Part shown: positions 6,322-23,977 of the stretch, in pieces | Layout of the letters: the number at the start of each line of letters is the position of its first letter | How positions within the stretch are numbered: the stretch's first letter is position 1 | Source of the DNA: Leuconostoc mesenteroides subsp. mesenteroides ATCC 8293 | GTDB lineage: Bacteria > Bacillota > Bacilli > Lactobacillales > Lactobacillaceae | Direction: 5' to 3' | NCBI RefSeq assembly: GCF_000014445.1 | Contig: NC_008531.1 | Location: 837,001 to 901,000, forward strand | DNA length: 64,000 nucleotides | Made by a program: the position numbers and the translations under genes | The notes under the pieces: generated by a model | The model's database searches: none | Told to the model about the DNA's origin: nothing | What the model saw: the letters and a program-made list of their open reading frames with translations, nothing else

Positions 6322-6419
6322 AGAGTATTCGATAGATAAACTGGTTCAGTTGAAATAGGGAAATCGCAGAGCGGGCATCTTGTACTGGTTGGCGTTTTTC
6401 CATAAAGGAGAGCATATTT

Positions 6420-8039
6420 ATGGCAGATGAAAAAATAGAACAAGCGATTAAAAATGGTGAAGTTGCACTTGGTGTTGAATTTGGTTCGACGACGGTAAAG
6501 GCAATCTTAACAACTGAAGATTTCAAAACAATTGCTTCAGGTAGCTATGAATGGGATAACAGTTTGCAAGATGGGCTGTGGACATATGCGATAGATGATA
6601 TTTGGCTGGGATTGCAAACAGCTTATAGGAATCTTAGAAAGAAAGTATCTGTCGATTACAATGTTGAGATAAAACAGATTAACGCCATGGGATTTTCAGC
6701 GATGATGCATGGTTATCTAGCATTTGATAAGAATAATGAATTATTGGTCCCTTTTCGTACATGGCGTAATGCCATCACTGAAGAGGCATCGCTAGAATTG
6801 ACAAAATTATTTGAATTTAATATTCCACAACGTTGGAGTGTTGCCCATCTTTATCAAGCTATTTTGAACCAAGAGACCCATGTCAAAAACATTGAATTTT
6901 TAACAACCTTGGCAGGCTACGTTCATTGGCAATTGACTGATCAAAAAGTTATAGGTATCGGTGACGCTTCTGGAATGTTCCCAATTGATGAGAAAACTGG
7001 GAGCTACAGTCAGCGCATGCTGAGCCAGTTTGATTCTTTGAAGTCTGTCCAACAATATAATTGGCACATTCAAGACTTACTACCAAAGCCATTAACAGCT
7101 GGTGAGGTTGGTGGGTACTTAACAGAGAAAGGGGCGAGGTTACTTGACCCTAGTGGCAATTTATCAGCAGGAGCAACTATTGCACCTCCGGAAGGAGATG
7201 CAGGAACGGGTATGGTGTCAACTAACAGTGTTAAAAAACGTTCTGGAAATATTTCAGTAGGTACATCAATTTTTTCTATGATTGTACTAGAAAAAAGTTT
7301 ACAGCACGTTTATACAAATATTGATATAGTGACAACGCCTACCGGCTCGCCAGTAGCAATGGTTCATGCCAATAACTCAGCATCTGATTTGAGTGCGTGG
7401 GTCAAACTATTTTCGCAATTTGCTAAGATGATTGGCAGTAATATTTCTACCAGTGAATTATACCAAGCACTTTTTAATACCGCGTTGACGGAAGCAGAAC
7501 CAGATGCTGGTGGTCTGTCTGGTTACGGTTATTATTCTGGTGAGAATATTACCGCGGTCCCAGAAGGACGGCCATTATTAGTGCGACAGCCAGATTCTGA
7601 ATTTACTATTGGTAATTTGATGAGATTTCATTTTTTCACAGCATTTGGTGCTATTAAAATCGGTATGCGTATTCTATCTGACGAAAAAGTTTTGACAGAC
7701 AATATCGTGGCGCAAGGAGGTGTCTTCAAAACGCCCATTGTGGCACAAAAATTATTAGCCGCAGCACTAAATACCGATATTACCGTAATGAAAACAGCAG
7801 GTGAAGGTGGCCCATGGGGAATGGCCGTGTTGTCTTTGTACACGATAAATAAAAAAACAACTCAAACTTTGGATGATTTTTTGGATAATAATGTGTTTAT
7901 CAATGAAAAATACGAAACCTTATCTCCTGAACCTGAAGATGTTCAAGGATTTGAACAGTTTATGGAGCGATATGTCGCAGGGCTAGATATTGAATTGACA
8001 GCGATTAAAACATTGCCATCAAAAAAAGAGAAGGAGTAA
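6420..8039 (+). CDS. araB: L-ribulokinase (FGGY family)
   Basis: The 539-residue FGGY-family kinase phosphorylates L-ribulose to L-ribulose 5-phosphate with ATP. The N-terminal ATPase loop is visible in ALGVEFGSTTVKAIL, substrate-binding segments follow (MMHGYLAFD, VPFRTWRN), the catalytic Asp is in EGDAGTGMV (Asp260), and the C-terminal adenosine-binding region is in TAGEGGPWGMAVL. It resembles the Lactobacillus plantarum type of AraB rather than the E. coli type, as I recall them. The start has a good site, AAAGGAGAG, 8 bases before the ATG. It ends 5 bases before araD. Confidence 0.92.
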   Translation: MADEKIEQAIKNGEVALGVEFGSTTVKAILTTEDFKTIASGSYEWDNSLQDGLWTYAIDDIWLGLQTAYRNLRKKVSVDYNVEIKQINAMGFSAMMHGYLAFDKNNELLVPFRTWRNAITEEASLELTKLFEFNIPQRWSVAHLYQAILNQETHVKNIEFLTTLAGYVHWQLTDQKVIGIGDASGMFPIDEKTGSYSQRMLSQFDSLKSVQQYNWHIQDLLPKPLTAGEVGGYLTEKGARLLDPSGNLSAGATIAPPEGDAGTGMVSTNSVKKRSGNISVGTSIFSMIVLEKSLQHVYTNIDIVTTPTGSPVAMVHANNSASDLSAWVKLFSQFAKMIGSNISTSELYQALFNTALTEAEPDAGGLSGYGYYSGENITAVPEGRPLLVRQPDSEFTIGNLMRFHFFTAFGAIKIGMRILSDEKVLTDNIVAQGGVFKTPIVAQKLLAAALNTDITVMKTAGEGGPWGMAVLSLYTINKKTTQTLDDFLDNNVFINEKYETLSPEPEDVQGFEQFMERYVAGLDIELTAIKTLPSKKEKE

Positions 8040-8044
8040 ACGTT

Positions 8045-8749
8045 ATGTTAGAAGATTTGAAAAAAGAAGTTTACGAAGCTAACATGGCTTTGCCAGCTAA
8101 TAATTTAGTGACTTTAACTTGGGGAAATGTTTCCCAAGTTGATCGCGAGAAAGGGGTTTTTGTAATTAAGCCTAGTGGTGTTGATTATAATGACCTCAAG
8201 CCTGAAGACATGGTGGTTGTTAGTTTAGATGGGCATGTTGTGGAAGGAAATTTGAATCCTTCTACAGATACCCCAACCCATGCATTTTTGTACCGACATT
8301 GGACTGATTTGGGTGGAATCGTTCACACCCATTCAAAATGGGCTGTTGCCTTTGCTCAAGCAGGAATACCAGTTCCTGCTGCTGGAACAACCCATGCGGA
8401 CACATTTTATGGGGATGTTCCAGTCGCTCGGCGTTTGACTAAAAATGAAGTAGATAGTGAGTACGAACTAAATACTGGGAAATCAATTGTACGCGCGTTT
8501 GAAAGTGAAGATATTGATCCCATGGCAGTTCCGGGTGTTTTGACGAATGATCATGGACCATTTACATGGGGGAAAGATGCTATGGATGCGGTTCATAATG
8601 CTATAGTTTTGGATGTTGTAGCTGAAATTGATTATCATACTATGAGCCTTAATCCTTCGCAAGATATTCACGTACCACAATATTTGTTAGACCGTCATTA
8701 CTATAGAAAACACGGTGTAAACGCATATTACGGACAAAATACTCATTGA
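8045..8749 (+). CDS. araD: L-ribulose-5-phosphate 4-epimerase
   Basis: AraD epimerises L-ribulose 5-phosphate to D-xylulose 5-phosphate, which heterofermentative bacteria cleave by phosphoketolase. The 234 residues carry the class II aldolase-type zinc site (HTHSKWAVAFAQ, and a third His in LTNDHGPFTW). The N-terminus has the substrate loop LTWGNVSQVDRE. GAAGGAG precedes the ATG. It is the last gene of the ara unit and is followed by a hairpin terminator. Confidence 0.96.
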   Translation: MLEDLKKEVYEANMALPANNLVTLTWGNVSQVDREKGVFVIKPSGVDYNDLKPEDMVVVSLDGHVVEGNLNPSTDTPTHAFLYRHWTDLGGIVHTHSKWAVAFAQAGIPVPAAGTTHADTFYGDVPVARRLTKNEVDSEYELNTGKSIVRAFESEDIDPMAVPGVLTNDHGPFTWGKDAMDAVHNAIVLDVVAEIDYHTMSLNPSQDIHVPQYLLDRHYYRKHGVNAYYGQNTH

Positions 8750-8829: not shown

Positions 8830-9657
8830 TTATTTTTTAGTGTAGTAGGACAGTATTCGATCAAATAACTGAGTGGTATTAACATCGTTTAGATATTCTG
8901 TAATATTATAGGCTTCTTTTATTTTCTTTTCATTATTATAGTAAATTCCGGTTAGAAATAATTTCCATAATTGTTGATTGGTGTTGAGTGATATTTTTTC
9001 CATTTCCAATTTATTAAGTAAAAAAGTAGTAATATTATTTTCCTTCTGCATGATACTAGTTTCCAAATATTTAATTATCGTATTAGTAATTATATCAGGG
9101 TAGCACATAACATTGGATTCGCTGTTGTATTGTGACAAAATGTCTAAGAAATACGATTTCGTTTTCTTAACAGGAAGCATATTAATAGTAGATTCAAACA
9201 GATAAATATCGTAGAGACGCCAATTAATAATTTTATCAAAATATGAAAAAAGTATATTTTGATCAATTTCATCTGCTGATTGAAAGAAAAGATGATAAAT
9301 AGTTGATTGTACCATTAGCATACGATGCTTTGTTTCTATATCTAATGATTTATGATGCTTATAGTGTGAAAATATTTTACGTAATTCATCAATGCTTCCC
9401 TGCATGTATAGCTTATCTAGGTTATTTCTAAAAGTTGTCGTATTTTGATCCGGACCAAATATACTATAGAAGTATTCCTCAACGGTAATCTCAAGTTTGT
9501 TACAAAGAATAAATATGGTTTGAGCATTTGGCAAAATTTGCCCATTTTCTATTCTGGAAACCATGGCCTGAGAACCAACAATATCGCCCAGTTGCGCTTG
9601 AGACATATTTCTCAATTTTCTCTTTTCTTTGATAATGTTGCTCTTAAATTCTCTCAT
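8830..9657 (-). CDS. Rgg/GadR/MutR family transcriptional regulator, divergent from dsrE
   Basis: The 275-residue protein has an N-terminal XRE helix-turn-helix (about 8-62: LRNMSQAQLGDIVGSQAMVS, then RIENGQILPNAQTIFILCNK) and a long, helix-rich C-terminal part with no enzyme motif, the arrangement of Rgg-type regulators whose repeat domain binds short peptides. The founding Rgg of Streptococcus gordonii activates the neighbouring glucosyltransferase gene gtfG. Here the gene is divergent from dsrE, also a GH70 enzyme, so control of dsrE is a strong inference. GATGGGGA lies before the start. I found no obvious peptide pheromone gene in the 208-base gap. Confidence 0.82.
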   Translation of the reverse strand: MREFKSNIIKEKRKLRNMSQAQLGDIVGSQAMVSRIENGQILPNAQTIFILCNKLEITVEEYFYSIFGPDQNTTTFRNNLDKLYMQGSIDELRKIFSHYKHHKSLDIETKHRMLMVQSTIYHLFFQSADEIDQNILFSYFDKIINWRLYDIYLFESTINMLPVKKTKSYFLDILSQYNSESNVMCYPDIITNTIIKYLETSIMQKENNITTFLLNKLEMEKISLNTNQQLWKLFLTGIYYNNEKKIKEAYNITEYLNDVNTTQLFDRILSYYTKK

Positions 9658-9730: not shown

Positions 9731-9736
9731 TACTTT

Positions 9737-9760
9737 ATTCAATATTGAATATGCTATTAT
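9737..9760 (+). promoter_or_regulatory. Probable dsrE promoter region with palindrome
   Basis: The perfect palindrome ATTCAATATTGAAT (9737-9750) is followed by TGCTATTAT (9752-9760), an extended -10 element. The -35 region is poor, as expected for an activator-dependent promoter, and the palindrome lies where an activator would bind. Inference only. Confidence 0.45.
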
Positions 9761-9865
9761 GCATAAATTACAAAAGAGAAGCAGAAGGCTTATAGAATGA
9801 AATGGTAAAGGTTTGACATCTTTATGAGTACTTTACGGTAAGAATATGAAGTGAGGGAAAATTTC

Positions 9866-12800
9866 ATGAGAGACAAAAGAATAATATGCGATCGTAAAAA
9901 ATTGTATAAATCTGGGAAACTGTTAGTGACAGCCGGTATTTTTTCTGCTGTGATATTTGGCGTTTCCACAACTAACGTAAGCGCTGATAGCACTAACAAC
10001 ACTGGTGTTACGGTGTCACAAGCACCAGATAAAGTAGCGGACACAACAGCTACAACAGATAAAGTAGCAGACACGACGGCTACAACGGATAAAGCAGCGG
10101 ACACAACAGCTACAACAGATAAAGTGGCCGACACAGCAGCTGCAACGGACAAAGTAGCGGACACAACAGCTACAACGGACAAAGTAGCGGACACAACAGC
10201 TACAACAGATAAAGTGGCCGACACAGCAGCTGCAACGGACAAAGTAGCGGACACAACAGCTACAACAGATAAAGTAGCGGACACAACAGCTACAACGGAC
10301 AAAGTAGCGGACACAACAGCTACAACAGATAAAGTAGCGGACACAGCAGCTGCAACGGATAAAGCAGCGGACACGACGGCTACAACAGATAAAGCAGCGG
10401 ACACGACGGCTACAACAGATAAAGTGGCCGACACAGCAGCTACAACAGATAAAGCAGCGGACACGACGGCTACAACAGATAAAGTGGCCGACACAGCAGC
10501 TACAACAGATAAAGCAGCCGATACAGCGGCTACAACGGATAAAGTAACCGACACAACAGTTGCAACGAATAAAGCAGTGGACACAACAGCTACAACAGAT
10601 AAAGTGGACGACACAACAGCCACAACGTCAGAAAAATCAAAAAGTATTAAACAAATTGATGGTAAAACTTATTTCATTGGTGATGATGGTCAGCCTAAGA
10701 AAAATTTTACAGCCATTGTTGACGGTCAAGTATTATATTTCGACAAAGATACTGGTGCTTTGACATCAAATAGTAGTCAATATACCGATGGTTTAGTCAA
10801 TATAGGAAATGAGCATAATGCGGCTTATTCATTGTCTTCGGATAGTTTTACACAAGTTGATGGCTATCTAACGGCTAACAGTTGGTACCGACCTAAAGAT
10901 ATATTAAAAAATGGTACAACTTGGACGGCTGCAACAGCAAACGATTTTCGACCATTGTTAATGTCTTGGTGGCCAGATAAAGATACCCAAGTTTCATACT
11001 TAAAATATATGCAATCTGCGGGATTATTATCAGATGACGTTGCATTATCAAACAATGATAGTATGAACAGTTTGACGGATACGGCTATGACTGTTCAAAA
11101 AAACATTGAAGAAAAAATTGGCCTATTGGGCAGTACTGACTGGCTTAAGGCCGATATGAACCAAATGGTTGATTCACAATCGAATTGGAACATTAGTAGT
11201 GAGTCTAAAGGAACAGATCATTTGCAAGGTGGTGCGCTCCTATACGTTAATAGTGATTTAACACCAAATGCCAATTCTGATTATCGTTTATTAAATCGAA
11301 CGCCAACTAACCAAAAAGGTCAAATTACAACAAATGGTAATCAAGGTGGCTATGAGATGCTGTTGGCCAACGATGTTGATAATTCTAACCCAATTGTTCA
11401 AGCTGAACAATTGAATTGGTTATACTACATGATGAATATCGGTAGCATCGCCCAAAATGATCCAACAGCAAATTTTGACGGTTACAGAGTTGATGCTGTT
11501 GATAACGTGAATGCTGACTTGTTGCAAATTGCTGGAGATTATTTTAAAGCAGCATATGGAACAAATCAAAGTGACGCTAATGCAAACAATCACATTTCCA
11601 TCTTAGAAGACTGGGACAATAATGATCCAGCGTATGTAAAAGCACAGGGGAACAACCAATTAACCATGGATTTTCCAATGCATTTGGCATTGAAGTATTC
11701 ATTGAATATGCCAAGTAGTGCTCGTAGCGGTTTGGAACCAGCAATTTCAACAAGCCTAGTAAATCGTGCAGCAGACGCCACAGAAAATGAAGCCCAACCG
11801 AACTATTCATTTATTCGTGCACATGATAGTGAAGTACAAACGGTTATTGCTCAAATTATTAAAGATAAAATTAATCCTAGTTCCGATGGATTGACTGTCT
11901 CAACAGATGAAATTGCCAAAGCATTCGAAATATATAATGCTGACGAATTAAAGGCTGATAAAGAGTATACCGCATATAATATACCCTCATCATATGCATT
12001 GATGTTAACTAACAAAGATACAATTCCTCGTGTGTATTATGGTGATTTGTTTACGGATGATGGACAATATATGTCTGCAAAATCACCATATTATGATGCA
12101 CTTACTTCATTGCTTCAATCGCGAGTAAAATATGTTTCAGGTGGTCAATCTATGAATATGACTTACCTTCATAATAATCAAGGCCTTTTGACGTCAGTCC
12201 GCTATGGAAAAGACGCCATGACAGCTAACGACACTGGTACAAGTGAAACGCGCACACAAGGTATTGGATTAATTGTCGGCAACAAAACTGATTTAAACCT
12301 GAATAATGATGAGCAAATTGTGCTTAACATGGGCGCCGCACACAAAAATCAAGCTTACCGTGCATTAATGTTAAGTACTAAAGATGGCTTGAAAATTTAT
12401 AATAGTGATGACGAGGCACCGGTATCGTATACAGATGATCAAGGCCGTTTGATTTTTAAATCTGATGTGGTTTATGGTGTGAGTGATGCTCAGGTTTCTG
12501 GTTATTTAGCAGCTTGGGTGCCAGTCGGTGCAAACGATAGCCAAGATGCTAGAACAGAAAGTAGTACAACAGCGTCAACAGATGGTAATACCTATCATTC
12601 AAATAGTGCCTTAGATTCTCAAGTTATATATGAAGGTTTTTCAAACTTCCAAGCCATGCCAACACAGGCCGATGAGTATACCAATATCAAGATTGCCGAA
12701 AATGCACAATTATTCAAGAGCCTTGGGATAACAAGCTTTGAATTGGCACCTCAATACCGTTCAAGTACGGATAACAGTTTCTTAGATTCAGTTATTCAAA

Positions 12801-15800
12801 ATGGCTATGCCTTCACGGATCGCTACGACATTGGTTATAATACGCCTACAAAGTACGGTACAGTTGACCAACTATTAGATGCTTTAAGAGCATTGCATGC
12901 CCAAGGCATTCAGGCTATCAATGATTGGGTCCCAGACCAAATTTATAATTTGCCTGGCGAAGAAATAGTGACAGCCAGTCGAACAAACGGTTCGGGAAAG
13001 GTGAATGAAAGTTCAGTTATTAATAATACGCTATATGATTCTCGTACTGTTGGTGGCGGAGAGTATCAAGCAATATATGGAGGTGCTTTCTTAGATAAGT
13101 TAAAACAAGATTATCCTGAGTTATTTGAAACAAAACAAATTTCAACAGGTGAAGCAATGAACCCTGATGTCAAAATCACAGAATGGTCAGCTAAGTATTT
13201 TAATGGCTCAAACATTCAAGGACGTGGTGCATGGTATGTTCTCAAGGATTGGTCAACAAATCAATACTTTAATGTTTCAAGTGGTAGTGAATTTTTACCT
13301 AAGCAACTGTTAGGCGAAAAAACAAGTACAGGGTTTACCAACGTGGACAATGGCAAGACTGAGTTTTATTCTACGAGTGGCTACCAAGCAAAGAATACAT
13401 TTATTCAAGATAATGACAATTGGTATTATTTTGATAATGATGGCTATATGGTTGTTGGCGGTCAAGAAATTAATGGTAAAAAATATTATTTCCTACCAAA
13501 TGGTGTAGAGTTACAAGATGCTTATTTGTCTGATGGGACTAGTGAGTATTACTACAGTAGTGATGGTCGTCAAATTTCTAATCAATATTATCAAGGATCA
13601 GACAACAACTGGCGTTATTTCTTTGCAGATGGTCATATGGCTGTAGGGTTAGCAACAATTACTACAGAAAATGGTACAACAAATCAACAATATTTCGATG
13701 CAAATGGTATGCAACTTAAGGGCGTAGCTATAAAGGATACTGATGGCAATGTGCACTATTTTGATGGTAAGACAGGAAACATGGTTATAAATTCCTGGGG
13801 CAAAATAAGCGATGGTTCATGGTTATACTTAAATGATAGCGGTGTAGCGGTCACAGGACCGCAAAATATTAACGGTCAAAATCTTTACTTCAACGAAGAC
13901 GGTATTCAAGTAAAGGGTGAAGCCATTACTGATAATAGTGGAAACATACATTATTATGATCGCAGCACAGGAAATATGGTTGTGAACTCATGGGGTGAAA
14001 CGAATAATGGTTCATGGCTATACTTGAACGACAAGGGTGATGCCGTTACAGGAGAACAAGTTATTGACGGTCAAAAACTATATTTCAGTAGTAATGGAAT
14101 CCAACTTAAAAATACATTCAAGAAGCTATCCGATGGTTCATGGCTATATTTGAACGATAAAGGTCTTCCAGTGACAGGAGCACAGGTCATTGATGGACAA
14201 AACTTGTATTTCGACCAAGATGGGAAGCAAGTCAAAGGTGACGTTGCTACAGATGGACAAGGTAACACTCATTATTATGACGGCAACACAGGAAATATGG
14301 TTACTAATTCATGGGCAGAGTTAGCGGACGGTTCATGGATGTATCTAGATAATGATGGCAATCCTTTAACAGGACCGCAAAAGATTGATGGCCAGTCACT
14401 CTACTTTAATGATGCTGGTAAGCAAATCAAAAACGCATTGGTTAAACTAGATGATGGGTCAACAATTTACCTCGATGATAAAGGTGTTTCATCAACCGGT
14501 ATTCAAAGAATTGATGATAAGATATATTATTTTGATCCTGATGGTAAACAAGTAGTATGTCGTTTTGAAGAATTACCAGATGGTTCATGGATGTATCTAG
14601 ATGATGACGGTGTTGCTGCTACGGGCGCTCAAAAAATTAATGGCCAGGAATTATATTTCGACAATAACGGGAAACAAGTCAAAAATGACAAAGTAATTAA
14701 TGACGATGGAACAATAAACTATTACACAGGTATGAGCGGTGAAAAACTAAAAAATGATTTTGGTGAATTACCAGACGGTTCATGGATGTACTTGGATAAT
14801 CAAGGTAATGCTGTAATAGGTGCCCAAAAAATTAATGGCCAGAATCTTTACTTCAAGACAGACGGACGACAGGTTAAGGGTGAAGCAAATGTTGATTCAT
14901 CGGGTGAAATGCACTTCTATGATCCTGATTCTGGCGAGCTAATTACAAATAGATTTGAACAAGTTGCTAGTGGTGTATGGGCTTACTTTGATGCCAACGG
15001 TGTTGCTGTAACTGGTGAGCAACGCATTGGTAAGCAAAATTTATTTTTTGATCCAACTGGTTATCAAGTTAAAGGCGACAAACGAACAATTGACGGCGTT
15101 CTCTATACCTTTGATAAAGAAAGTGGTGAGAGAAAGGGTTTAGATTCTATATCGGTATTACCCACCAATGGACAATACACAACCGATAAGGCCCAAAATT
15201 GGTATTACCAAGTCGATGGTGAAAATGTAAAAGGGCTATATACAAATAATGATGGTCAATTACGTTACTTCGATTTGACAACTGGCGTGCAGACTAAAGG
15301 TAATTTTGTGACAATTGGCAATGATACCTACTATTTCACCAAGGAACAAGGGGATGGACAGATAGTTTCTGAGGTTGTGTCAGGACACTATGGTACTGTC
15401 CAGTTGAGTGACAATTCGTCTGCATGGGTTTATCGCGGTGCAAATGATCAAATTTTGAAAGGCCTACAGAATATAAACGGTCGTCTGCAATATTTTGATC
15501 TAACCACCGGTGCGCAATTAAAAGGCGGTGCTGCAAACTATGATGGCAACCTTTATTATTTTGAATCATCAGATGGTAACCTAGTCAGTAAAATTCAGCA
15601 ATCTTATTCTACTGGGAATTATGTGACCGATGGTGATAAAGTAACATATGTTGATGAGCAAAACAACCAAGTCACGGGATTAGCGTTGATTGATGATCAA
15701 CTACAATACTTCAATCCAAGTGACGGTAGTCAAGTCAAGAATGAGCAGGTTATCGTTGATGGCGTCACATACTACTTTGATAAAAATGGTAATGGACAAT

Positions 15801-18391
15801 ACTTGTTTACAAATACTGCAACGATGTCTACTAATGAATTTGCCAAACATAGTGCTGCTTATAGCAATGATAGTTCTAGCTTCAAGAATACGATAGATGG
15901 TTTCTTGACGGCCGATACCTGGTATCGCCCTAAAGATATCTTGGAAAACGGACAAACGTGGGTAGTTTCTTCAACAAATGACGTGCGACCACTGATAACA
16001 GTTTGGTGGCCAAATAAAGATGTTCAAGTTAATTATTTAAATTTTATGAAGAAAAATGGTTTGCTAGATACAAGTAGTCAATTTAATCTACAATTTGATC
16101 AATATGACTTGAATGTCGCCGCGCAAAAAGTTCAAGTGGCTATTGAAAAACGCATTTCGAAAGAAAAGAGTACAGATTGGTTGAAAGATCTTTTGTTTGA
16201 AGCTCATGAAGATACGCCTTCATTTGTGAAACAACAATTTATTTGGAATAAAGATTCTGAATATCAAGGTCAAGGGGATGCGTGGTTCCAAGGTGGTTAT
16301 CTGAAATATGATAATAGTGAATTAACCCCAACAACGAACTCAGATTATCGTGAATCCGGTAATACATTAGACTTCTTGCTTGCTAATGATGTCGACAATT
16401 CTAACCCAGCGGTTCAAGCTGAAAATTTGAATTGGTTACATTATTTAATGAACTTTGGCACGATTACAGCTAATGATGATGATGCCAACTTTGACAGTAT
16501 TCGTATTGATGCCGTTGACTTTATTGATAATGATGCCATTCAGAGAACCTACGATTACATGCGTGATGCTTATAAAGTTGATGCAAGTGAAGACAACGCT
16601 AATAAGCATATTTCACTAGTTGAAGCTGGATTAGATGCTGGTACCTCTACAATTAAGAATAATGCTTTAGTTGAATCTAACTTTAGAGAGGCAGCTACAC
16701 TATCGCTAGCAAATCAATCAGGGAAAAATAGTTCCTTGACTAATATGTTGCAAGACATTGATGGTGGCCAGATTATAGCTGATCACGCCAACAATGCAAC
16801 AGAAAATGAAGCAACGCCAAATTATTCAATTATTCATGCTCATGATAAGGGGATTCAAGAAAAGGTTGGTGCAGCAATTACCGACGTTACTGGTGCAGAC
16901 TGGACGAATTTCACCGATGACCAATTAAAAGAAGGATTAGCAGCTTATTATCAAGATCAACGTTCAACGAATAAAAAGTATAACATCTATAACTTACCTA
17001 GTATCTATGCTTTGATGTTGACCAATAAGGACACAGTTCCTCGTGTTTATTACGGTGATATGTATCAAGATGATGGCCAGTATATGGAAAAGCAAAGTAT
17101 TTATTATGATGCCATTGTTTCCTTGATGAACACTAGAAAGAGTTATGTGAGCGGTGGACAAACCATGGATGTAGATGAACATGGTTTGTTGAAGAGCGTT
17201 CGTTTTGGTAAAGACGCAATGACAGCTAGTGAACTTGGTACGAATGAAACACGCACTGAAGGTGTTGGTGTGCTGGTCGGTAATGATTCTTCACTAAAAC
17301 TAAATGATTCAGATACAGTTACTTTAGAGATGGGGGCGGCTCATAAAAACCAAGAGTACCGAGCTGCATTGTTGACAACTAGTGATGGTATTGTTACGTA
17401 TGATGCTGATAATGATGCACCAACGATCTGGACAGATGACCGGGGTACATTAACGTTCTCAAATAAGGAGATTGCTGGTCAAGATTATACTAGTGTGCAA
17501 GGATTCGCTAATCCACAAGTATCAGGTTACTTAGCAGTTTGGGTGCCCGTAGGAGCTAGTGACGATCAAGATGCCCGAACAGCAGCATCAACAGATAAAA
17601 ATACTGATGACAAAGTACTGCATTCTAATGCTGCATTAGATTCGAACTTGATTTACGAAGGTTTTTCGAACTTTCAACCTAAAGCAACCACCAATGATGA
17701 ACTGACTAACGTAGTAATTGCTAAAAATGCTAATTTATTTGAAAAGTGGGGAATCACAAGTTTTGAGATGGCACCACAATATCGTTCAAGTGGGGACCAC
17801 ACGTTCTTAGATTCAACGATTGATAATGGTTATGTATTTACTGACCGATACGATTTGGGATTTGAAACACCAACTAAGTACGGTACTGATAAGGATTTGC
17901 GTACTGCAATTAAAGCATTGCACCAATCAAATATGCAGGTTATGGCTGATGTAGTTGATAACCAAGTTTATAATTTATCTGGACAAGAGGTCGTATCAGC
18001 TTCACGTGCTGGTGTTTACGGCAATGATGTGTCAACTGGATTTGGGACACAACTCTATGCGGTTAATAGTGTTGGTGGTGGTAAATATCAAGCCCAATAC
18101 GGTGGTGAATATTTGAATGAATTGAAGCAACAATACCCAGATTTGTTCGAAGCTAAGACGTATGACTATTGGGTTAAAAATTATTCAAATGACGGATCGG
18201 ATCCGTATTACACACTGTCGCAAAACACACGAAAAGATATGCCAAGTAGTGAGGTCATTAAACAATGGTCAGCTAAATATATGAATGGTACTAATGTATT
18301 AGGAAACGGTATGGGATATGTTTTGAAAGATTGGAATACAGGTGAGTACTTCAAAATTGGAGAAAAGAATGCTGATTTTATAACAAATTAA
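9866..18391 (+). CDS. dsrE: DSR-E-type glucansucrase: dextransucrase domain plus branching-sucrase domain
   Basis: A secreted 2841-residue enzyme with two GH70 catalytic domains. Order: signal peptide 1-40 (KKLYKSGK motif, cut near VSA/DS), a Thr/Ala repeat (55-254), a short glucan-binding stretch, CD1 (about 330-1150), a large glucan-binding domain of aromatic YG-type repeats (about 1170-1985), and CD2 (about 1990-2841). CD1 has Asp543, Glu581 and Asp654 with HDSEVQT after the last, typical of alpha-1,6 dextransucrases. CD2 has Asp2215, Glu2253 and Asp2327 with HDKGIQEKV, typical of DSR-E CD2, which adds alpha-1,2 branches. These CD2 positions are each 5 above the DSR-E triad I remember (2210, 2248, 2322). 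Start: the ATG at 9866 is preferred; GTG 9851 is in frame, but its GTGAGGG acts as the SD. alpha-1,3 branching is the main alternative. No LPXTG anchor is seen. Confidence 0.95.
10028..10627 (+). repeat. 20 tandem 30-bp in-frame units encoding a Thr/Ala/Asp/Lys repeat
   Basis: Twenty consecutive 30-base units encode variants of [10 protein letters not shown] (also [30 protein letters not shown]). The last three units are the most diverged, suggesting expansion from the upstream side. There are no spacers, so it is not a CRISPR. It lies just after the signal peptide of DsrE and is likely extended and flexible. Unit number is expected to vary between strains. Confidence 0.95.
13380..15820 (+). 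repeat. Glucan-binding repeat domain of DsrE
   Basis: Many degenerate units of roughly 20-30 residues with recurring patterns such as [22 protein letters not shown] and DGKQVKG link the two catalytic domains (about residues 1170-1985). Boundaries are approximate. Such repeats bind dextran and aid processivity in GH70 enzymes. Confidence 0.85.
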
Positions 18392-18418
18392 TCAATAAGG
18401 TTTTCTTATATTGTTGAG

Positions 18419-18460
18419 AAAGGAAGTGTGATTTTTAAATCATCACGCTTCCTTTTTTTT
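18419..18460 (+). terminator. Terminator of dsrE
   Basis: AAAGGAAGTGTGAT pairs with ATCACGCTTCCTTT (one G-U pair) and is followed by a long T run. Confidence 0.9.
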
Positions 18461-18517
18461 TGATTTATTTTCATCTGATATTAACAAATTACATTGTCAA
18501 GTATCTAGGCAAAATTT

Positions 18518-18546
18518 TTGTAACCGCTCTCTACTAATGATATAGT
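18518..18546 (+). promoter_or_regulatory. Promoter of the stress SDR gene, with cre-like spacer
   Basis: TTGTAA (18518-18523), 17-bp spacer, TATAGT (18541-18546). TGTAACCGCTCTCT (18519-18532) fits the loose cre pattern. The same layout recurs at 19989-20017. A perfect inverted repeat, AACAAACA/TGTTTGTT (18553-18560 and 18564-18571), lies just downstream in the roughly 90-base leader. Confidence 0.6.
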
Positions 18547-18640
18547 AGGCATAACAAACAAAGTGTTTGTTAAACAATATACACGTTATTAGTGCGTGTC
18601 AAGATTGTGCTGAGTACTGTATGAAAAAGGGAGGAATTAT

Positions 18641-19510
18641 ATGACAAACATAAATGGAGAATATGCAAAGCAGAATTTTCCAAAACAGAGTCAACCTGAA
18701 CCAGGATTACAAAGCAAGATGTCGCCAACACCAGATGATGGTGCAGCAAGTTACGTTGGGCATGACCGCCTGAAACATAAGAAAGCACTGATAACCGGTG
18801 GTGACTCAGGAATCGGCAGATCTGTGGCGATAGCGTATGCGCATGAAGGTGCTGATATTGTGTTAAATTATCTCCCTGAAGAAGAACCAGATGCACAAGA
18901 AGTTAAGGGCATTATTGAATCATTGGGTCGTAAAATCAAGCTAGTTCCAGGTGATTTAAAGAATGAATCATTCAGCCAAAAGTTGATTGATGAAGCAGTT
19001 TCATTTTTTGGTGATTTAAGTATTTTGACGTTAGTAGCTGGCAAACAACAAGCGGAAGTTGATATAGCTAATTTGTCGACACAACAAATAACCGACACTT
19101 ATGCAACAAATGTTTTTAGTCTCGTTTGGCTTGTTAAAGCGGCTTTACCACATATGCAACCTGGCAGCAGTATCATAACAACGAATTCTATTCAGGCAGA
19201 GCAACCATCGTCATTTCTCGTGGATTATGCAGGTACAAAAGCTGCTATCAAGAATATGACGATGAGTTTGGCTAAACAATTGGCTAATCGGGGGATTCGC
19301 GTGAATAGTGTGGCACCTGGTCCCATTTGGACACCTTTGCAGATTGTTGGTGGACAGTTACCGGAGAACATTCCAACATTTGGCCAATCGACACCCATCG
19401 GTAGAGCTGGTCAACCAGCAGAATTAGCAGGCGCTTATGTTTTCCTAGCATCAAATGAATCTAGCTATGTAACAGGTGAGTCAATCAATGTTACTGGTGG
19501 CTTAAAGTAA
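18641..19510 (+). CDS. SDR family oxidoreductase, general-stress type
   Basis: A 289-residue short-chain dehydrogenase/reductase with an extra N-terminal arm of about 45 residues ([20 protein letters not shown]), as in Bacillus general stress protein 39 and YhxC/YhxD-like proteins. The cofactor loop is [11 protein letters not shown] (Gly53-Gly59 region), and the active site is Tyr196 and Lys200 in YAGTKAA. The physiological substrate is unknown for this subgroup; NADP-dependent reduction of an aldehyde or ketone is likely. AAGGGAGG precedes the ATG. It heads a block of stress and envelope genes, which supports the role. No terminator separates it from the next small gene. Confidence 0.88.
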
Positions 19511-19583
19511 ATCATGAGCTCCTTTGAATTTCGTAGATACTAATCAGAAATTTGGTTGGATCAACGAAGAAAGTGGAGAAAAG

Positions 19584-19706
19584 ATGGATAAAAAGAATAA
19601 AAAATTTGGCTTTTGGGATAAACTGTCGATGCTTTTGGCGTTGTCTCAATTATTGTTCAGTTTCTATTATTTTGTCAGAAATTGGAAGAAAACAAAAGAA
19701 GATTAA
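19584..19706 (+). CDS. Small single-span membrane protein, unknown function
   Basis: A 40-residue protein: a basic N-terminus (MDKKNKKFGFWDKL), one hydrophobic segment (about 15-31, LSMLLALSQLLFSFYYFV) and a charged tail. The frame is open upstream to a TTG at 19524, but the ATG at 19584 has a GTGGAG ribosome site 5 bases upstream and is preferred. I do not recognise the family. It lies between the stress SDR gene and a 44-residue gene, all in one direction. Confidence 0.6.
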   Translation: MDKKNKKFGFWDKLSMLLALSQLLFSFYYFVRNWKKTKED

Positions 19707-19740
19707 CAAATTTTCATTTTAGGCATAAAGGAGGAAAACT

Positions 19741-19875
19741 ATGTTAAAAACTGTACTTAAGGTATTGTTGGCATCTACATTAATTCTAGGCGGTATAGCA
19801 GTTGGAGGGACCATATTTGCAGCTAAAGGCATCGATAAAGCTGGGGACCGTTTGGAAGAGGAAATCCATAATTAA
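19741..19875 (+). CDS. 44-residue membrane or exported peptide, unknown function
   Basis: The ATG at 19741 has a near-perfect AAAGGAGG ribosome site and encodes 44 residues: MLKTVLKVLLASTLILGGIA, then VGGTIFAAKGIDKAGDRLEE and EIHN. It has one hydrophobic helix at the N-terminus and an acidic tail. It could be a small membrane-anchored stress protein, or be cut by signal peptidase near FAA. It is followed by a hairpin terminator, so it may end the transcript starting at the SDR promoter. Too short for most gene finders. Confidence 0.7.
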   Translation: MLKTVLKVLLASTLILGGIAVGGTIFAAKGIDKAGDRLEEEIHN

Positions 19876-19892
19876 ATCATTGAACAGATAAT

Positions 19893-19931
19893 AACGATAG
19901 CAACTTATTGATGAGGAGCTGTTGTTTTTTT
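19893..19931 (+). terminator. Terminator after the 44-aa gene
   Basis: AACGATAGC (19893-19901) pairs with GCTGTTGTT (19918-19926) with two G-U pairs, and a T run follows. Confidence 0.6.
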
Positions 19932-19988
19932 AATCTTTTAAAAATAACTCATAATTTCATTGTTTTGTAAAGGGGGTAAGCATTATTT

Positions 19989-20017
19989 TTGTAAACGCTT
20001 TCCGTTAGTGCTATATT
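19989..20017 (+). promoter_or_regulatory. Promoter of the GlsB-AmaP-Asp23 operon, with cre-like spacer
   Basis: TTGTAA (19989-19994), 17-bp spacer, TATATT (20012-20017). TTTTTGTAAACGCTTTCC spans the -35 region and is nearly a cre. It matches the SDR promoter at 18518-18546 in -35, spacer length and spacer sequence. Confidence 0.65.
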
Positions 20018-20071
20018 TAGGCTAGTGAATTGGATATCATAATTCATAGAGAAGAGAATGGAGGAAAGATT

Positions 20072-20317
20072 ATGATTTGGTCATTAATTGTAGGTGCCAT
20101 TATTGGTGCCATTGCAGGTGCTATCACAAATCGTGGTGAGTCAATGGGGTGGATTAGCAATATTATTGCTGGTCTAATCGGATCGGCTATTGGCCAGGCT
20201 TTGTTGGGTCAATGGGGACCTAGCTTGGCGGGAATGGCAATCATTCCTTCGATAATTGGTGCTGTGATTCTTGTACTAGTCGTGTCAATGGTGCTTGGTA
20301 TGAGAGCAAAACAGTAG
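20072..20317 (+). CDS. GlsB/YeaQ/YmgE family stress response membrane protein
   Basis: An 81-residue, glycine-rich, three-helix membrane protein with the family patterns IVGAIIGAIAGAITNRGESM, GWISNIIAGLIGSAIGQALL and GPSLAGMAIIPSIIGAVILV. The family is stress-induced in enterococci (GlsB) and enteric bacteria (YmgE); its molecular role is unknown. The ATG at 20072 has a GGAGGAAAG site and is preferred to an in-frame upstream TTG at 20030. It is paralogous to the gene at 22521 and heads the Asp23 operon. Confidence 0.88.
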   Translation: MIWSLIVGAIIGAIAGAITNRGESMGWISNIIAGLIGSAIGQALLGQWGPSLAGMAIIPSIIGAVILVLVVSMVLGMRAKQ

Positions 20318-20341
20318 CATAAGGTAATAGAGAGGTATGAT

Positions 20342-20896
20342 ATGAAGAAAAGTCAAAAAATTGTTCTGAGTATTTTCAGCCTCGGATATTTGGTTGGGCT
20401 TTGTTTGTTAATATGGCCGCAAATAATTGATGAAGTGTTCAAATTTTTAGCAGAGTTTAATATACATTTAGACTTTAAGAGCGATCTTTTCATTTATTAC
20501 TATGGTCTTGTACTGCTGGCACTGACCGTGCTTGTGTTTTTACTCATATTGATATGGCCGGTAGAATTACCAGATATTCCTTTGAAGCAAACCAAAGAAG
20601 GACGGCTTGCGTTGAGTAATCATGGTATCAACCAGTTTATTCAGACAAAGCTCTCAGGTGAAGATTTATCAAATATTAAAGTGAGATTGAAAAATACTCG
20701 TCGTCAACGAAAATTTTATATTGTTGCTGATTCAGTTTATAAACAGGCGACAGTCGAAGAATTACCTCGTATTTCATACGATTTAACGAAAAGCTTGAGT
20801 GATTTACTCGCTGGCATAAATCGAATTCCCATTAAAGTTGATATTAAAGTAAATCAGAAATCAAACTCAAAGCGTAAAGTCACACGTGTGATTTAA
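20342..20896 (+). CDS. amaP: AmaP-type membrane anchor for Asp23
   Basis: This 184-residue protein has two N-terminal membrane helices (about 7-30 and 53-78) and a cytoplasmic C-terminal region. The size, topology and position next to DUF2273 and Asp23 genes match AmaP, which anchors Asp23 at the membrane in staphylococci. The terminal residues are very basic (NQKSNSKRKVTRV). It begins 24 bases after the GlsB-like gene. Confidence 0.85.
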   Translation: MKKSQKIVLSIFSLGYLVGLCLLIWPQIIDEVFKFLAEFNIHLDFKSDLFIYYYGLVLLALTVLVFLLILIWPVELPDIPLKQTKEGRLALSNHGINQFIQTKLSGEDLSNIKVRLKNTRRQRKFYIVADSVYKQATVEELPRISYDLTKSLSDLLAGINRIPIKVDIKVNQKSNSKRKVTRVI

Positions 20897-20913
20897 AAAG
20901 GAGTGCGGATATA

Positions 20914-21114
20914 ATGAAAGACAAAAAATCAATTAATATTTGGGTTGGTGGTCTTGCGGGTTTCATTCTGTCAACTCTATTGGTAACTGTAGGATTTTGG
21001 AAGACGATTTTGATTATAGTTGTCACCTTACTAGCAGGTTGGATTGGCTACTTGCTCGAAGCGTATAATGTCGATTTATCAATTGTCTCTAAAATATTTA
21101 CACGTAAAAATTAA
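20914..21114 (+). CDS. DUF2273 small membrane protein
   Basis: A 66-residue protein with two closely spaced hydrophobic helices (about 9-27 and 29-47) that invariably, in my knowledge, sits between amaP and asp23/gls24 genes. AAAAAGGAG precedes the ATG. It is presumably part of the membrane complex that holds Asp23. Function is not known in detail. Confidence 0.85.
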   Translation: MKDKKSINIWVGGLAGFILSTLLVTVGFWKTILIIVVTLLAGWIGYLLEAYNVDLSIVSKIFTRKN

Positions 21115-21141
21115 TTATTTAGATATAGAAAGGATTTAATT

Positions 21142-21669
21142 ATGTCTACAGAAAAAACAACTACACAAAATACTGCAACAGAGAATCGTCAACCTAAAGG
21201 TGAATTAACATTTGATGACAAAGTGATTCAAAAAGTAGTGGGCTATGCAATTGAAAACGTGACAGGATTGCTAGGTGTTGATGGTGGTTTTGTCGCAAAC
21301 ATTAAAAATAAAATTGTGAATACGGATAACCCCACTGATGGCATTGGTGTCGAGGTCGGAAAAGAACAAGTTGCGGTAGATTTAGATATTATCATGGAAT
21401 ATGGACACAACGCACATGATATTTATAAGCAACTAACAGAAGTAATCACAAAACAGGTGCGAGAAACAACAAGTTTGACGCTAGTTGAGTTAAATGTTGA
21501 AGTAGTTGATATTCAAACACAAAAAGAATTTGATGAATCACAAACAAGCCTACAGGATCGCGTAACAGACGCTGGTAGCACAATCAAAGAAAAAACTTCA
21601 GATGGCGTTGATGCCGTGAAAAAGACAACTTCTCAAGCAGTGAACGATGACGACAATCGTGTCAAGTAA
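21142..21669 (+). CDS. Asp23/Gls24 family envelope stress response protein
   Basis: The 175-residue protein has the Asp23 core (about 20-130: LTFDDKVIQKVVGYAIENVT, GLLGVDGG, and later VDLDIIMEYGHNAHDIYKQL), followed by a polar tail (DRVTDAGSTIKEKTSDGVDA onward) with a repeated amphipathic character. Asp23 forms a layer under the membrane in Staphylococcus, and Gls24 is a general stress and virulence factor in Enterococcus. It is the last gene of the four-gene unit and is followed by a strong terminator. Confidence 0.92.
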   Translation: MSTEKTTTQNTATENRQPKGELTFDDKVIQKVVGYAIENVTGLLGVDGGFVANIKNKIVNTDNPTDGIGVEVGKEQVAVDLDIIMEYGHNAHDIYKQLTEVITKQVRETTSLTLVELNVEVVDIQTQKEFDESQTSLQDRVTDAGSTIKEKTSDGVDAVKKTTSQAVNDDDNRVK

Positions 21670-21705
21670 ACGCACAAGCATTTTGAAGTTGCAGTAGCAA
21701 GTCTC

Positions 21706-21735
21706 AGCACAACGGTCTAAACGTTGTGCTTTTTA
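21706..21735 (+). terminator. Terminator of the Asp23 operon
   Basis: Perfect 9-bp stem AGCACAACG (21706-21714) with CGTTGTGCT (21722-21730), 7-base loop, then TTTT. Confidence 0.88.
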
Positions 21736-21761
21736 TAATTAGAACTAGGTTGATGTAAGCT

Positions 21762-22406
21762 ATGAAGCGAATAAAAATTCAAAAATTTTTGCATAAACAC
21801 GGGAATGTTTTCTTGCTTGCCTTGACTAGTGGTACCTTAGTAGCTTTGCTAACTTCTTTGACTGCGTCTTGGGAATACATTCTCCTAACAGGATGGGACT
21901 GCGCTATATTCGTACTTTTTTGTTTAGTAATTTACTCTTTTTATCCGATGGATCAAGGCCGGCACACGAAGAAAGTAATTCTCAAAGAAGGTATTCGATA
22001 TCCACTGATTGATGCGTTTGTTGTCTTTTCAAGTGCAGTGAGTGTGTTTATTGTGATTTTGTTATTAACTATCAGCAAAGGCAGTCGCCTGGAAATTGTA
22101 TTTTGTATTTTTAGTGTTTTTTCTTCTTGGAATTTGATTCAATTATTGTACGCTATTCATTACACGGAAATTTATTACCAAAATAATGGTGGTGTGTCAT
22201 TTAATGCAAAGGGTCTTCCTAATTTCTGGGATTTTTTGTATTTAGCCTATACCATTGGTATGACTTACCAAGTTTCGGATACAAATTTTTCTACAACCCG
22301 TTTTCGAAAAGTTGCATTAGGGCACTCACTCATTTCTTTTGCCTTTAGCACACTCCTCATTGCCACTATGATTAATTTTATAGCCAGTTTGATTAGTAGT
22401 CACTAA
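21762..22406 (+). CDS. DUF1345 family membrane protein
   Basis: This 214-residue protein has about five membrane segments and the DUF1345 hallmarks: a Y-x-E-I-Y-Y loop followed by NNGGVSF, then PNFWDFLYLAYTIGMTYQVS and a DTNFSTTRFRK segment. No function is established for the family. The ribosome site is weak (TAGGTTGATG). It lies alone between the Asp23 operon and a second GlsB-like gene, so a link to envelope stress is only positional. Confidence 0.85.
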   Translation: MKRIKIQKFLHKHGNVFLLALTSGTLVALLTSLTASWEYILLTGWDCAIFVLFCLVIYSFYPMDQGRHTKKVILKEGIRYPLIDAFVVFSSAVSVFIVILLLTISKGSRLEIVFCIFSVFSSWNLIQLLYAIHYTEIYYQNNGGVSFNAKGLPNFWDFLYLAYTIGMTYQVSDTNFSTTRFRKVALGHSLISFAFSTLLIATMINFIASLISSH

Positions 22407-22520
22407 GCCCTTTTTAGAATCAAACGTGATAAAAGTGCAAGCTAAATATTTGCGGAAAAAATATGACAGTGGTAATCTGGACTTAGGTTCTGATAGAGAA
22501 CCAGAAGGAGAGATATCATT

Positions 22521-22769
22521 ATGGGATTAATTTGGACACTTATCGTAGGTGCAGTTATCGGTGCTATTGCAGGAGCAATTACAAGCCGCGGTGCAGCTAT
22601 GGGATGGATTAGTAACATCATTGCTGGTTTAATTGGTTCTTGGTTAGGTGAAAGCCTTCTTGGATCATGGGGACCAAGCTTAGCAGGAATGGCACTTATT
22701 CCTTCAATTATTGGTGCAGTTGTATTAGTCTTAATCGTATCTTGGATTACTAGTCGCACAAATAAGTAA
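22521..22769 (+). CDS. GlsB/YeaQ/YmgE family stress membrane protein, second copy
   Basis: This 82-residue paralogue of the protein at 20072 shares most residues, including GWISNIIAGLIGS and GPSLAGMA.IPSIIGAV. AGAAGGAGAG precedes the ATG. It has three helices with small-residue packing motifs. It is followed closely by a 47-residue hydrophilic gene and then a terminator, suggesting a two-gene unit. The duplication within 2.5 kb probably arose by local copying. Confidence 0.88.
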   Translation: MGLIWTLIVGAVIGAIAGAITSRGAAMGWISNIIAGLIGSWLGESLLGSWGPSLAGMALIPSIIGAVVLVLIVSWITSRTNK

Positions 22770-22841
22770 TTTATAAAAACTCACTGCGTAAAACTATAAT
22801 TAACTGTTTTACACAGAAAGTAGGTATAGGAGAAACTTATC

Positions 22842-22985
22842 ATGACAGAAAACAAAAATAAAGACCAAAATAAAGAAGAGCAGGTTAAGGATCAAAAGGA
22901 AAAGATTGATCCTGAGTCAACTGCCGAAAATACTAATCTTTACGAACATGATCCAAAAAACGCTGATTATAAAAAAGCTGATTAA
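22842..22985 (+). CDS. 47-residue hydrophilic, charged small protein
   Basis: The ATG at 22842 with upstream TAGGAGA encodes 47 residues, very rich in Lys, Glu, Asp, Asn and Gln, with no hydrophobic stretch: MTENKNKDQNKEEQVKDQKE, then KIDPESTAENTNLYEHDPKN. It looks intrinsically disordered, as do some small stress or desiccation-related proteins, but I recognise no family. A compound hairpin terminator follows directly, which supports its being a real last gene. Confidence 0.65.
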   Translation: MTENKNKDQNKEEQVKDQKEKIDPESTAENTNLYEHDPKNADYKKAD

Positions 22986-23007
22986 GGATTATATCAGTAT
23001 TGCTACT

Positions 23008-23045
23008 AAAGCTTAAATTTGTTAGTTAACAAGTTAGGCTTTTTT
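23008..23045 (+). terminator. Terminator after the 47-aa gene
   Basis: AAAGCTTAA pairs with TTAGGCTTT (one G-U) and an inner TTGTTA pairs with TAACAA, followed by a T run. Confidence 0.8.
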
Positions 23046-23081
23046 ATAAACCTTTTTGCAGTAGAATAGGAGACATTTTTA

Positions 23082-23924: not shown

Positions 23925-23977
23925 GTGATTTATGGTTTTCTCACTTTTAAAATTTTTACAAAGGAATATTGAAAAGT

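What the first reader, a model, noticed from the sequence alone, without database searches (positions are those of the whole stretch)
9866..18391. Dual-domain glucansucrase of DSR-E type: a dextran maker fused to a branching sucrase
Most GH70 enzymes have one catalytic domain. This one has two complete triads, CD1 with HDSEVQT (alpha-1,6 type) and CD2 with HDKGIQEKV (the motif of alpha-1,2 branching sucrases). The CD2 triad positions are each 5 above the DSR-E numbers I remember, so it is probably an orthologue with a slightly longer N-terminus. alpha-1,2-branched dextrans are rare and resist digestion. Differences from DSR-E in CD2, such as [15 protein letters not shown], may alter branch linkage.
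Basis: partly seen in the sequence, partly recalled or inferred. Interest (0 to 1): 0.75.

Follow-up and report, generated by a model that had tools for sequence, protein, structure and literature searches.

The report
Two-in-one dextran-making and branching enzyme
A lactic acid bacterium, likely Leuconostoc mesenteroides, carries one very long gene for an enzyme with two complete catalytic halves, one predicted to build dextran from sucrose and the other predicted to graft rare alpha-1,2 side branches onto it; enzymes of this two-in-one kind are already known, so this is a further member and not a new kind.

Summary
Window 9866-18391 is one intact 2,841-codon gene with two complete GH70 cores; the CD2 triad (D2215/E2253/D2327) sits 5 above DSR-E numbering. 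It is a DSR-E orthologue, a "twin" glucansucrase-branching sucrase. CD2 is 77.7% identical to L. citreum DSR-E-type CD2 and groups with it (bootstrap 100, SH-aLRT 99); grouping it with the alpha-1,3 enzymes is rejected. Motif II (RIDAVDF) matches three alpha-1,2 references, not three alpha-1,3 ones. Alpha-1,2 branching is likely but untested. The gene is almost certainly dsxD (LEUM_0857) of L. mesenteroides ATCC 8293, published as a 308-kDa glucansucrase; I found no linkage analysis of it. Around it: (1) a divergent Rgg-type regulator, beside a GH70 gene in 11 of 11 close homologues found in the genus and unmentioned in the published study of this strain's glycosyltransferase regulation; (2) plasmid copies that lack CD2; (3) signs that CD2 was exchanged between species. 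In passing: the related Rgg beside the strain's other glucansucrase gene, dsrI, reads in two conserved frames split at a run of 9-11 A in eight Leuconostoc genomes.

The parts
9866..18391 (+). Twin glucansucrase-branching sucrase gene, DSR-E type (likely dsxD, LEUM_0857)
   Evidence: open frame, two GH70 cores
9866..9985 (+). KxYKxGKxW secretion signal; cleavage after VSA assumed, mature mass then 308.0 kDa
   Evidence: Pfam and NCBIfam matches; mass
10026..10626 (+). 20 copies of a 30-bp repeat (10-residue repeat behind the signal)
   Evidence: Tandem Repeats Finder
10703..13360 (+). CD1, predicted alpha-1,6 dextransucrase core; triad codons at 11492, 11606, 11825
13361..15133 (+). Glucan-binding repeats; homology with the plasmid CD1-only genes ends at 15133
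15134..15790 (+). Further stretch between the repeats and CD2, matched by the DSR-E GBD-CD2 structure from residue 1769 on
15818..18364 (+). CD2, predicted alpha-1,2 branching sucrase core; triad codons at 16508, 16622, 16844
8830..9657 (-). Rgg/GadR/MutR-family regulator gene, divergent from the twin gene; proposed regulator (untested)
9803..9823 (+). Promoter-region block TGGTAAAGGTT...; TGGTAAAGGT is invariant in nine aligned regions; candidate operator (untested)
9736..9751 (.). Perfect 16-bp palindrome TATTCAATATTGAATA between the two divergent genes; imperfectly kept in relatives
   Evidence: 20 of 100 shuffles hold a match at up to two mismatches, so not significant alone
18422..18461 (+). 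Terminator-like hairpin and T run after the gene, seen by eye
   Evidence: sequence; the scan did not list it
18311..18391 (+). Last 81 bp of the gene, also present on other Leuconostoc and Weissella plasmids beside the SDR gene

Best explanation
This gene encodes one protein with a secretion signal and two complete GH70 catalytic cores, of which CD1 likely polymerises glucose from sucrose into alpha-1,6 dextran and CD2 is predicted to graft alpha-1,2 glucosyl branches onto that dextran. It is a DSR-E orthologue and, by inference, the dsxD gene of L. mesenteroides ATCC 8293. Shown by sequence: the intact frame, both triads, the glucansucrase mark (Trp) in CD1 and the branching mark (Gly) in CD2, membership of the DSR-E CD2 clade, and low dN/dS in both cores. 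Inferred: the alpha-1,2 linkage, hand-over of dextran from CD1 to CD2 through the repeats between them, and control by the divergent Rgg protein.
For: Two GH70 cores in one frame. Motif III reads EDW in CD1 and EAG in CD2, the criterion of PMC11299179 for GS against BrS (passages). CD2 matches the DSR-E CD2 structure 3TTO over 1769-2833 with 1780.9 bits; 77.7% identity to P0006, itself almost identical to 3TTO in the printed alignment. Six-row DSR-E CD2 clade at 100/99; holding the window CD2 with BRS-B and BRS-C types costs 335.5 log units (p-AU 1.7e-34), with GtfZ-CD2 667.5 (1.9e-55). Motif II RIDAVDF as in the DSR-E, BRS-A and BRS-D types, against RIDAISF (BRS-B, BRS-C types) and RIDAYAF (GtfZ). 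dN/dS against three relatives 0.038-0.058 for CD1 and 0.085-0.108 for CD2. A zymogram band of 308 kDa, tentatively assigned to DsxD by mass, is active in the likely source strain (PMC10177778 passages).
Against: No product data. The linkage labels do not form clean clades: the three alpha-1,2 references need 3 changes and the four alpha-1,3 rows 2 (132 of 500 shuffles as low) on the 52-row tree, and the BRS-A type falls weakly (83/75) with the alpha-1,3 BRS-B/BRS-C types. GtfZ-CD2, alpha-1,3, is still 62% identical to the window CD2. The motif II sign rests on three enzymes against three. The window differs from DSR-E at 2162, 2163, 2216 and 2325; engineered changes at F2163 shift acceptor choice on an unnatural acceptor (PMC7844235 passages). 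The labels of P0014 and P0023 rest on species and length, those of P0008 and P0009 on motifs.
Confidence: 0.85

Rival explanations
1. CD2 is a branching sucrase, but it would make alpha-1,3 branches, as GtfZ-CD2 of A. kunkeei does.
For: Alpha-1,3 activity occurs in two separate parts of the branching-sucrase tree, once inside a group with alpha-1,2-type members, so linkage can change quickly; GtfZ-CD2 is about 62% identical.
Against: Motif II is of the alpha-1,2 form; nearest characterised relative is DSR-E CD2 (77.7%); grouping with BRS-B/BRS-C or GtfZ is rejected.
Confidence: 0.07
2. CD2 keeps the fold, but its substitutions (2163 L, 2216 D) would give mixed linkage or mostly hydrolysis.
For: Differences at acceptor-side positions; F2163 variants of the engineered DSR-E CD2 shift regioselectivity on a synthetic tetrasaccharide (PMC7844235 passages).
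Against: L at 2163 also occurs in the BRS-A type (alpha-1,2) and position 2216 is H or S in the alpha-1,2 references; CD2 is under purifying selection.
Confidence: 0.05
3. Only CD1 would matter in the cell: CD2 is a dispensable passenger.
For: Two plasmids carry CD1-only relatives that end at window 15133, and their CD1 falls inside the twin clade. One relative (G001) has a TAG inside its CD2.
Against: dN/dS of CD2 is about 0.1 in several species pairs; a 308-kDa active band is reported (PMC10177778 passages).
Confidence: 0.03

Closest known systems
DSR-E of L. citreum NRRL B-1299 (CAD22883; CD2 structures 3TTO, 3TTQ)
   Same: Domain order signal - CD1 - glucan-binding repeats - CD2 with no C-terminal extension; same triads; CD2 77.7% and CD1 79.8% identical to the L. 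citreum stand-in P0006
   Different: Another species; N-terminal 30-bp repeat array; CD2 differs at 2162, 2163, 2216 and 2325; product not reported in what I found
DsxD (LEUM_0857), L. mesenteroides ATCC 8293 (PMC10177778)
   Same: Very probably this very gene: 308 kDa, genome of 2.07 Mb, two further single-core glucansucrase genes
   Different: The passages I saw do not describe two catalytic cores, branching or linkage for it (0 hits for 'branched' and 'catalytic domains')
GtfZ of A. kunkeei DSM 12361
   Same: Twin glucansucrase-branching sucrase
   Different: CD2 makes alpha-1,3 branches (PMC8398850, PMC12849098 passages); motif II RIDAYAF; fusion held to be of separate origin
BRS-A of L. 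citreum B-1299 (stand-in P0014)
   Same: Alpha-1,2 branching sucrase with motif II RIDAVDF
   Different: Single core; 63.6% identical to the window CD2
BRS-B and BRS-C (stand-ins P0026, P0023)
   Same: Branching sucrases of GH70
   Different: Alpha-1,3; motif II RIDAISF; 54.3% and 57.8% identical; grouping rejected
Rgg-gtfG of Streptococcus gordonii (recalled, from no call)
   Same: An Rgg-family regulator gene beside a GH70 glucosyltransferase gene
   Different: Here the pair is divergent and in Leuconostoc; regulation is not shown

Membership tests
Twin GS-BrS (DSR-E type) | Two complete GH70 cores in one polypeptide | tested here: met
Twin GS-BrS (DSR-E type) | CD1 with Trp, CD2 without it, two positions after the acid/base in motif III | tested here: met
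   EDW and EAG; criterion from PMC11299179
Twin GS-BrS (DSR-E type) | CD2 clusters with DSR-E CD2 | tested here: met
   100/99; 99 SH-aLRT on 52 rows
Alpha-1,2 branching sucrase (CD2) | Motif II RIDAVDF, as in three alpha-1,2 references and none of three alpha-1,3 references | tested here: met
   small sample
Alpha-1,2 branching sucrase (CD2) | Forms alpha-1,2 branches on dextran from sucrose | not testable with these tools
   needs enzyme and NMR
Dextransucrase (CD1) | GH70 core with glucansucrase motifs II-IV | tested here: met
   RVDAVDN, EDW, HDSEVQ
Dextransucrase (CD1) | Product mainly alpha-1,6 glucan | not testable with these tools
   needs enzyme assay
Rgg/GadR/MutR regulator (8830-9657) | N-terminal HTH and an Rgg C-terminal domain over the curated cut-off | tested here: met
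   HTH_3 47 bits; TIGR01716 37.6 against 36.9, narrow; Pfam Rgg_C 26.1, just under its 27

The most novel reading that the evidence does not exclude
Branched-dextran making in Leuconostoc is a regulated, modular trait: each glucansucrase locus has its own divergent Rgg regulator. The one at dsxD switches the branching twin through the conserved TGGTAAAGGTT site. The one at dsrI is made whole only by frame slippage at a conserved A9-A11 run. The branching half is exchanged between species and shed on plasmids.
Probability: 0.3. Interest if true: 0.62.

Novelty: new member of a known kind. Interest (0 to 1): 0.4.

Why it matters
Alpha-1,2-branched dextrans are rare, and the classic source is L. 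citreum B-1299. If the prediction holds, what appears to be the reference strain of L. mesenteroides carries a second, divergent alpha-1,2 twin enzyme whose product can be checked directly. The neighbouring Rgg gives a concrete candidate regulator for dsxD, where a published transcriptome study of that strain found none with a direct effect on the glucansucrases. The plasmid copies that lack CD2 are natural counterparts of CD1-only forms of DSR-E.

Tried and rejected
Motif IV as a linkage marker: rejected, since GtfZ-CD2 (alpha-1,3) and the BRS-A type (alpha-1,2) share HDKDIQDKV. 'A longer N-terminus explains +5': holds only in part (CD1 is +16 by recalled numbers). C-terminal truncation by an insertion sequence was considered, because the last 81 bp of the gene occur on plasmids, in one case beside an IS3-family transposase; rejected, because the match to DSR-E CD2 runs to within 8 residues of the end and the plasmid stretches look like remnants of this locus. 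A short hydrophobic pheromone ORF near the Rgg was looked for: 35 candidate starts (many nested in the same frames) with over 50% hydrophobic residues were listed; none stood out and conservation was not tested, so no claim is made. The promoter scan found no more promoter-like sites than shuffles (45 against mean 41.5, sd 7.1) and fewer terminator-like ones (4 against 6.7). The TGGTAAAGGTT pattern at up to two mismatches is no commoner in the genome than its reversed control (9 against 8); only its exactness and conservation are notable. The family-wide GH70 search was not used to count twins, because at most two candidates per genome were scored. PMC6070258 held none of the terms I searched. 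Structure prediction was not run: CD2 is about 78% identical to a solved structure.
Full report
1. What is there. Window 9866-18391 (+) is one open frame of 2,841 residues ending in TAA. A GTG 15 bases upstream gives a slightly longer frame, but the ATG has a GAGGG-like site in front and is followed by a KxYKxGKxW signal. Then come 20 copies of a 30-bp repeat, a first GH70 core, glucan-binding repeats (14 Choline_bind_3 stretches; 13 glucan_65_rpt stretches), and a second GH70 core that ends the protein. Triads: D543/E581/D654 and D2215/E2253/D2327. CD2 is +5 against DSR-E numbering as used in PMC7844235 (passages) and PMC8398850 (section 9); mapping.

2. Which strain. The window is G000:C2:837001-901000 of a 2,075,763-bp genome, whose contig C2 has 2,038,396 bp. 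I recall these as the sizes of L. mesenteroides ATCC 8293. PMC10177778 (passages) gives 2.07 Mb and three glucansucrase genes: dsxD (LEUM_0857, 308 kDa), dsrD (LEUM_1747) and dsrI (LEUM_1752). G000 shows this set: the twin (two core matches) plus two single-core genes about 10 kb apart at 1.71-1.73 Mb. The calculated mature mass is 308.0 kDa, taking cleavage after VSA. The neighbour Rgg is 94-95% identical to three L. suionicum proteins, which fits the L. mesenteroides group. The identification is inferred, but strongly. In that paper the 308-kDa band is assigned by mass only, is lacking on xylose and ascorbic acid, and dsxD falls by log2 2.06 on xylose against sucrose.

3. Is it DSR-E type? 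CD2 matches 3TTO (DSR-E GBD-CD2) over residues 1769-2833 with 1780.9 bits. The L. citreum protein P0006 is almost identical to 3TTO in the printed part of the alignment and stands in for DSR-E. CD2 identities: P0006 77.7%, BRS-A-type P0014 63.6%, GtfZ-type P0009 62.2%, BRS-C-type P0023 57.8%, BRS-B-type P0026 54.3%, own CD1 49.9%. Basis of the labels: P0014 and P0023 by species and exact length (1877 and 1774 aa; table in PMC8398850). P0026 by near identity to PDB 9i2j, labelled there only 'dextransucrase', which carries Q at the acid/base in the context HISIVQAPKGE, as the E709Q primer of BRS-B in PMC8514537 encodes (passage). P0008 by motif identity with BRS-D, and P0009 by motif identity with GtfZ-CD2 (PMC12849098 Table 1) and identity with the CD2 on a contig of strain DSM 12361 itself, L035.

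4. Linkage. In a 22-row tree with bootstraps the window CD2 sits in a six-row DSR-E CD2 clade (100/99). Holding it with the BRS-B and BRS-C types costs 335.5 log units (p-AU 1.7e-34), with GtfZ-CD2 667.5 (1.9e-55). A quick 52-row tree agrees. Against a simple reading: alpha-1,2 and alpha-1,3 enzymes are not two clades. The alpha-1,2 labels need 3 changes and the alpha-1,3 labels 2 on the 52-row tree, no fewer than many shuffles give, and the BRS-A type falls weakly with the BRS-B/BRS-C types. So the tree speaks for alpha-1,2 only through closeness to DSR-E. Motif II reads RIDAVDF in the window and in the three alpha-1,2 references, RIDAISF in the BRS-B and BRS-C types, and RIDAYAF in GtfZ: three enzymes against three, a supporting sign and no law; uncharacterised relatives have other forms (P0020, P0024, P0025). 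Near the acceptor site the window keeps W2135, F2136 and L2166 and, among the 37 positions compared, differs from DSR-E at 2162 (T), 2163 (L), 2216 (D) and 2325 (I); L at 2163 also occurs in the BRS-A type. The window against G016, L. litchii and L. citreum gives dN/dS 0.038-0.058 for CD1 and 0.085-0.108 for CD2, so CD2 is not decaying.

5. Spread. L. carnosum also has one (P0005). PMC11299179 (passages) counts 8 twins among 259 representatives, 5 of them Leuconostoc. PMC12849098 (passages) calls twins rare and suggests that the Leuconostoc and A. kunkeei fusions arose separately. I could not see whether the window's protein is one of those 5.

6. The branching half moves. (a) An L. mesenteroides plasmid (L001) carries two CD1-only genes with the same protein accession, 1,546 aa. 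They match the window at 93.0% over 10173-14420 and at 93.0% over 14765-15133, and the homology stops at 15133. An L. citreum plasmid (L003) shows the same end point, with a 1,300-codon frame and no gene annotated there. Their CD1 falls inside the twin clade beside G016 (quick tree), so loss of CD2 is the simplest reading. L001 also holds window 20383-21728 (AmaP/Asp23 genes of this same locus) at 97.9%, turned round. (b) Two other plasmid stretches (L002, L055) carry the last 81 bp of the gene plus the SDR gene, in L055 with further downstream genes, at about 98%; one search lists seven plasmid records with the 81 bp. (c) Between the window and L. litchii, synonymous divergence is 0.73-1.63 in windows up to residue 2025, 0.18-0.70 in windows from 1951 on, and 1.55-2.25 in five flanking genes. 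Against L. citreum there is no comparable drop (1.26-2.41 in the same part; 1.47 to saturated elsewhere). I read this as an exchange of the CD2 part between the two lineages; no formal recombination test was made.

7. The neighbour regulator. An Rgg-type gene (8830-9657, -) lies 208 bp from the twin gene, divergent. Its protein was searched in 31 genomes and the places were compared by eye; weaker hits (under 50 bits, mostly generic HTH) were left out. Close copies (over 200 bits) number 11, and 11 of 11 lie divergently 207-252 bp from a GH70 match (in G018 only an N-terminal piece at a contig end; in G006 a shortened frame). More distant copies number 13: 11 of 13 lie divergently beside another GH70 match, dsrI in the own genome (in G006 the evidence is a weak N-terminal match), 1 (G009) lies at the 3' side of a GH70 gene and 1 (G004 C6) near none. 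In nine aligned promoter regions of the close group TGGTAAAGGT is invariant. The wider pattern has one exact match in the genome, the window site, but with two mismatches it is no commoner than its control. [quoted passage not shown] A search on Rgg, glucansucrase, Leuconostoc and dextransucrase (three of four terms) found 130 papers; the 20 listed all have zero 'rgg', the other 110 were not seen. Regulation by this Rgg is a proposal, not a result.

8. A side discovery. Nine of the 13 distant Rgg copies read in more than one frame. In eight of them the break lies at a run of 9-11 A just after the HTH part, and the second frame stays open for 183-235 codons (183 in G003, which has one TGA further on; 224-235 in the other seven). 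The shift is -1 in four genomes and +1 in four. The ninth, in the fragmented genome G018, has A7 there and a third frame. Of the four single-frame copies two (G012, G011) have A8 there, and G004 and G009 have no such run. In G000, G001, G015 and G016 both parts are under purifying selection (dN/dS 0-0.15 over 64 codons, with dS saturated in two of six pairs; 0.11-0.22 over 219 codons), and the second part has 0 stops in its own frame against 14-16 and 22-34 in the others. That argues for use rather than decay, by slippage at the A run or by phase variation. Sequencing error in the A run is not excluded genome by genome. One search on these terms found nothing on it among the 8 papers listed.

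9. What is in print. Searches for the gene and its product: strain and enzyme names; DsxD: 69 papers, 20 listed, one on Leuconostoc; LEUM_0857: only PMC10177778. I saw no linkage analysis of DsxD in the listings and passages; subscription papers and supplements were not available.

10. Verdict. Observation confirmed; interpretation supported; kind already known. Added here: the likely identity with DsxD, a sounder linkage argument, the movement of CD2, and a candidate regulator.

Noticed in passing
L054:17779-18661 (own genome, about C2:1726778-1727660, outside the window); L064-L070 in seven other genomes: The Rgg-type gene beside dsrI reads in two frames split at a run of 9-11 A after the HTH part in eight Leuconostoc genomes; in the four tested both parts are under purifying selection, which suggests slippage or phase variation rather than decay.
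   Followed up: partly
L001:1-4641 and 17725-22365; L003:4609-8702: Plasmid-borne CD1-only relatives of the twin gene, both losing homology at window 15133; in L001 beside a turned-round AmaP/Asp23 piece of the same chromosomal locus.
   Followed up: partly
window 18311-25039; L002 and L055: The downstream genes (SDR; in L055 also AmaP, Asp23, aldo-keto reductase, MFS) occur at about 98% on plasmids of other Leuconostoc and Weissella, with the last 81 bp of the GH70 gene; an IS3-family transposase stands next to it in L002.
   Followed up: partly
window 15818-18364: CD2 and L. litchii differ far less at synonymous sites (0.18-0.70) than the rest of the gene and its flanks, which points to exchange of the branching domain.
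   Followed up: partly
window 4942-8749: An MFS sugar transporter, a FGGY sugar kinase and an AraD-type L-ribulose-5-phosphate 4-epimerase gene run toward the Rgg gene. The published loss of the DsxD band on xylose makes this curious, but of the flanking stretches compared only G016 kept all three.
   Followed up: no
G001:C1:1321925-1330459 (L051): The twin gene of one close relative carries an in-frame TAG inside CD2, so it reads as 2,121 and 725 codon stretches.
   Followed up: no
window 10026-10626: The 30-bp repeat array behind the signal peptide aligns poorly even with G016 (dN 0.10-0.20 against 0.003-0.051 elsewhere), as expected for an array that changes copy number.
   Followed up: no
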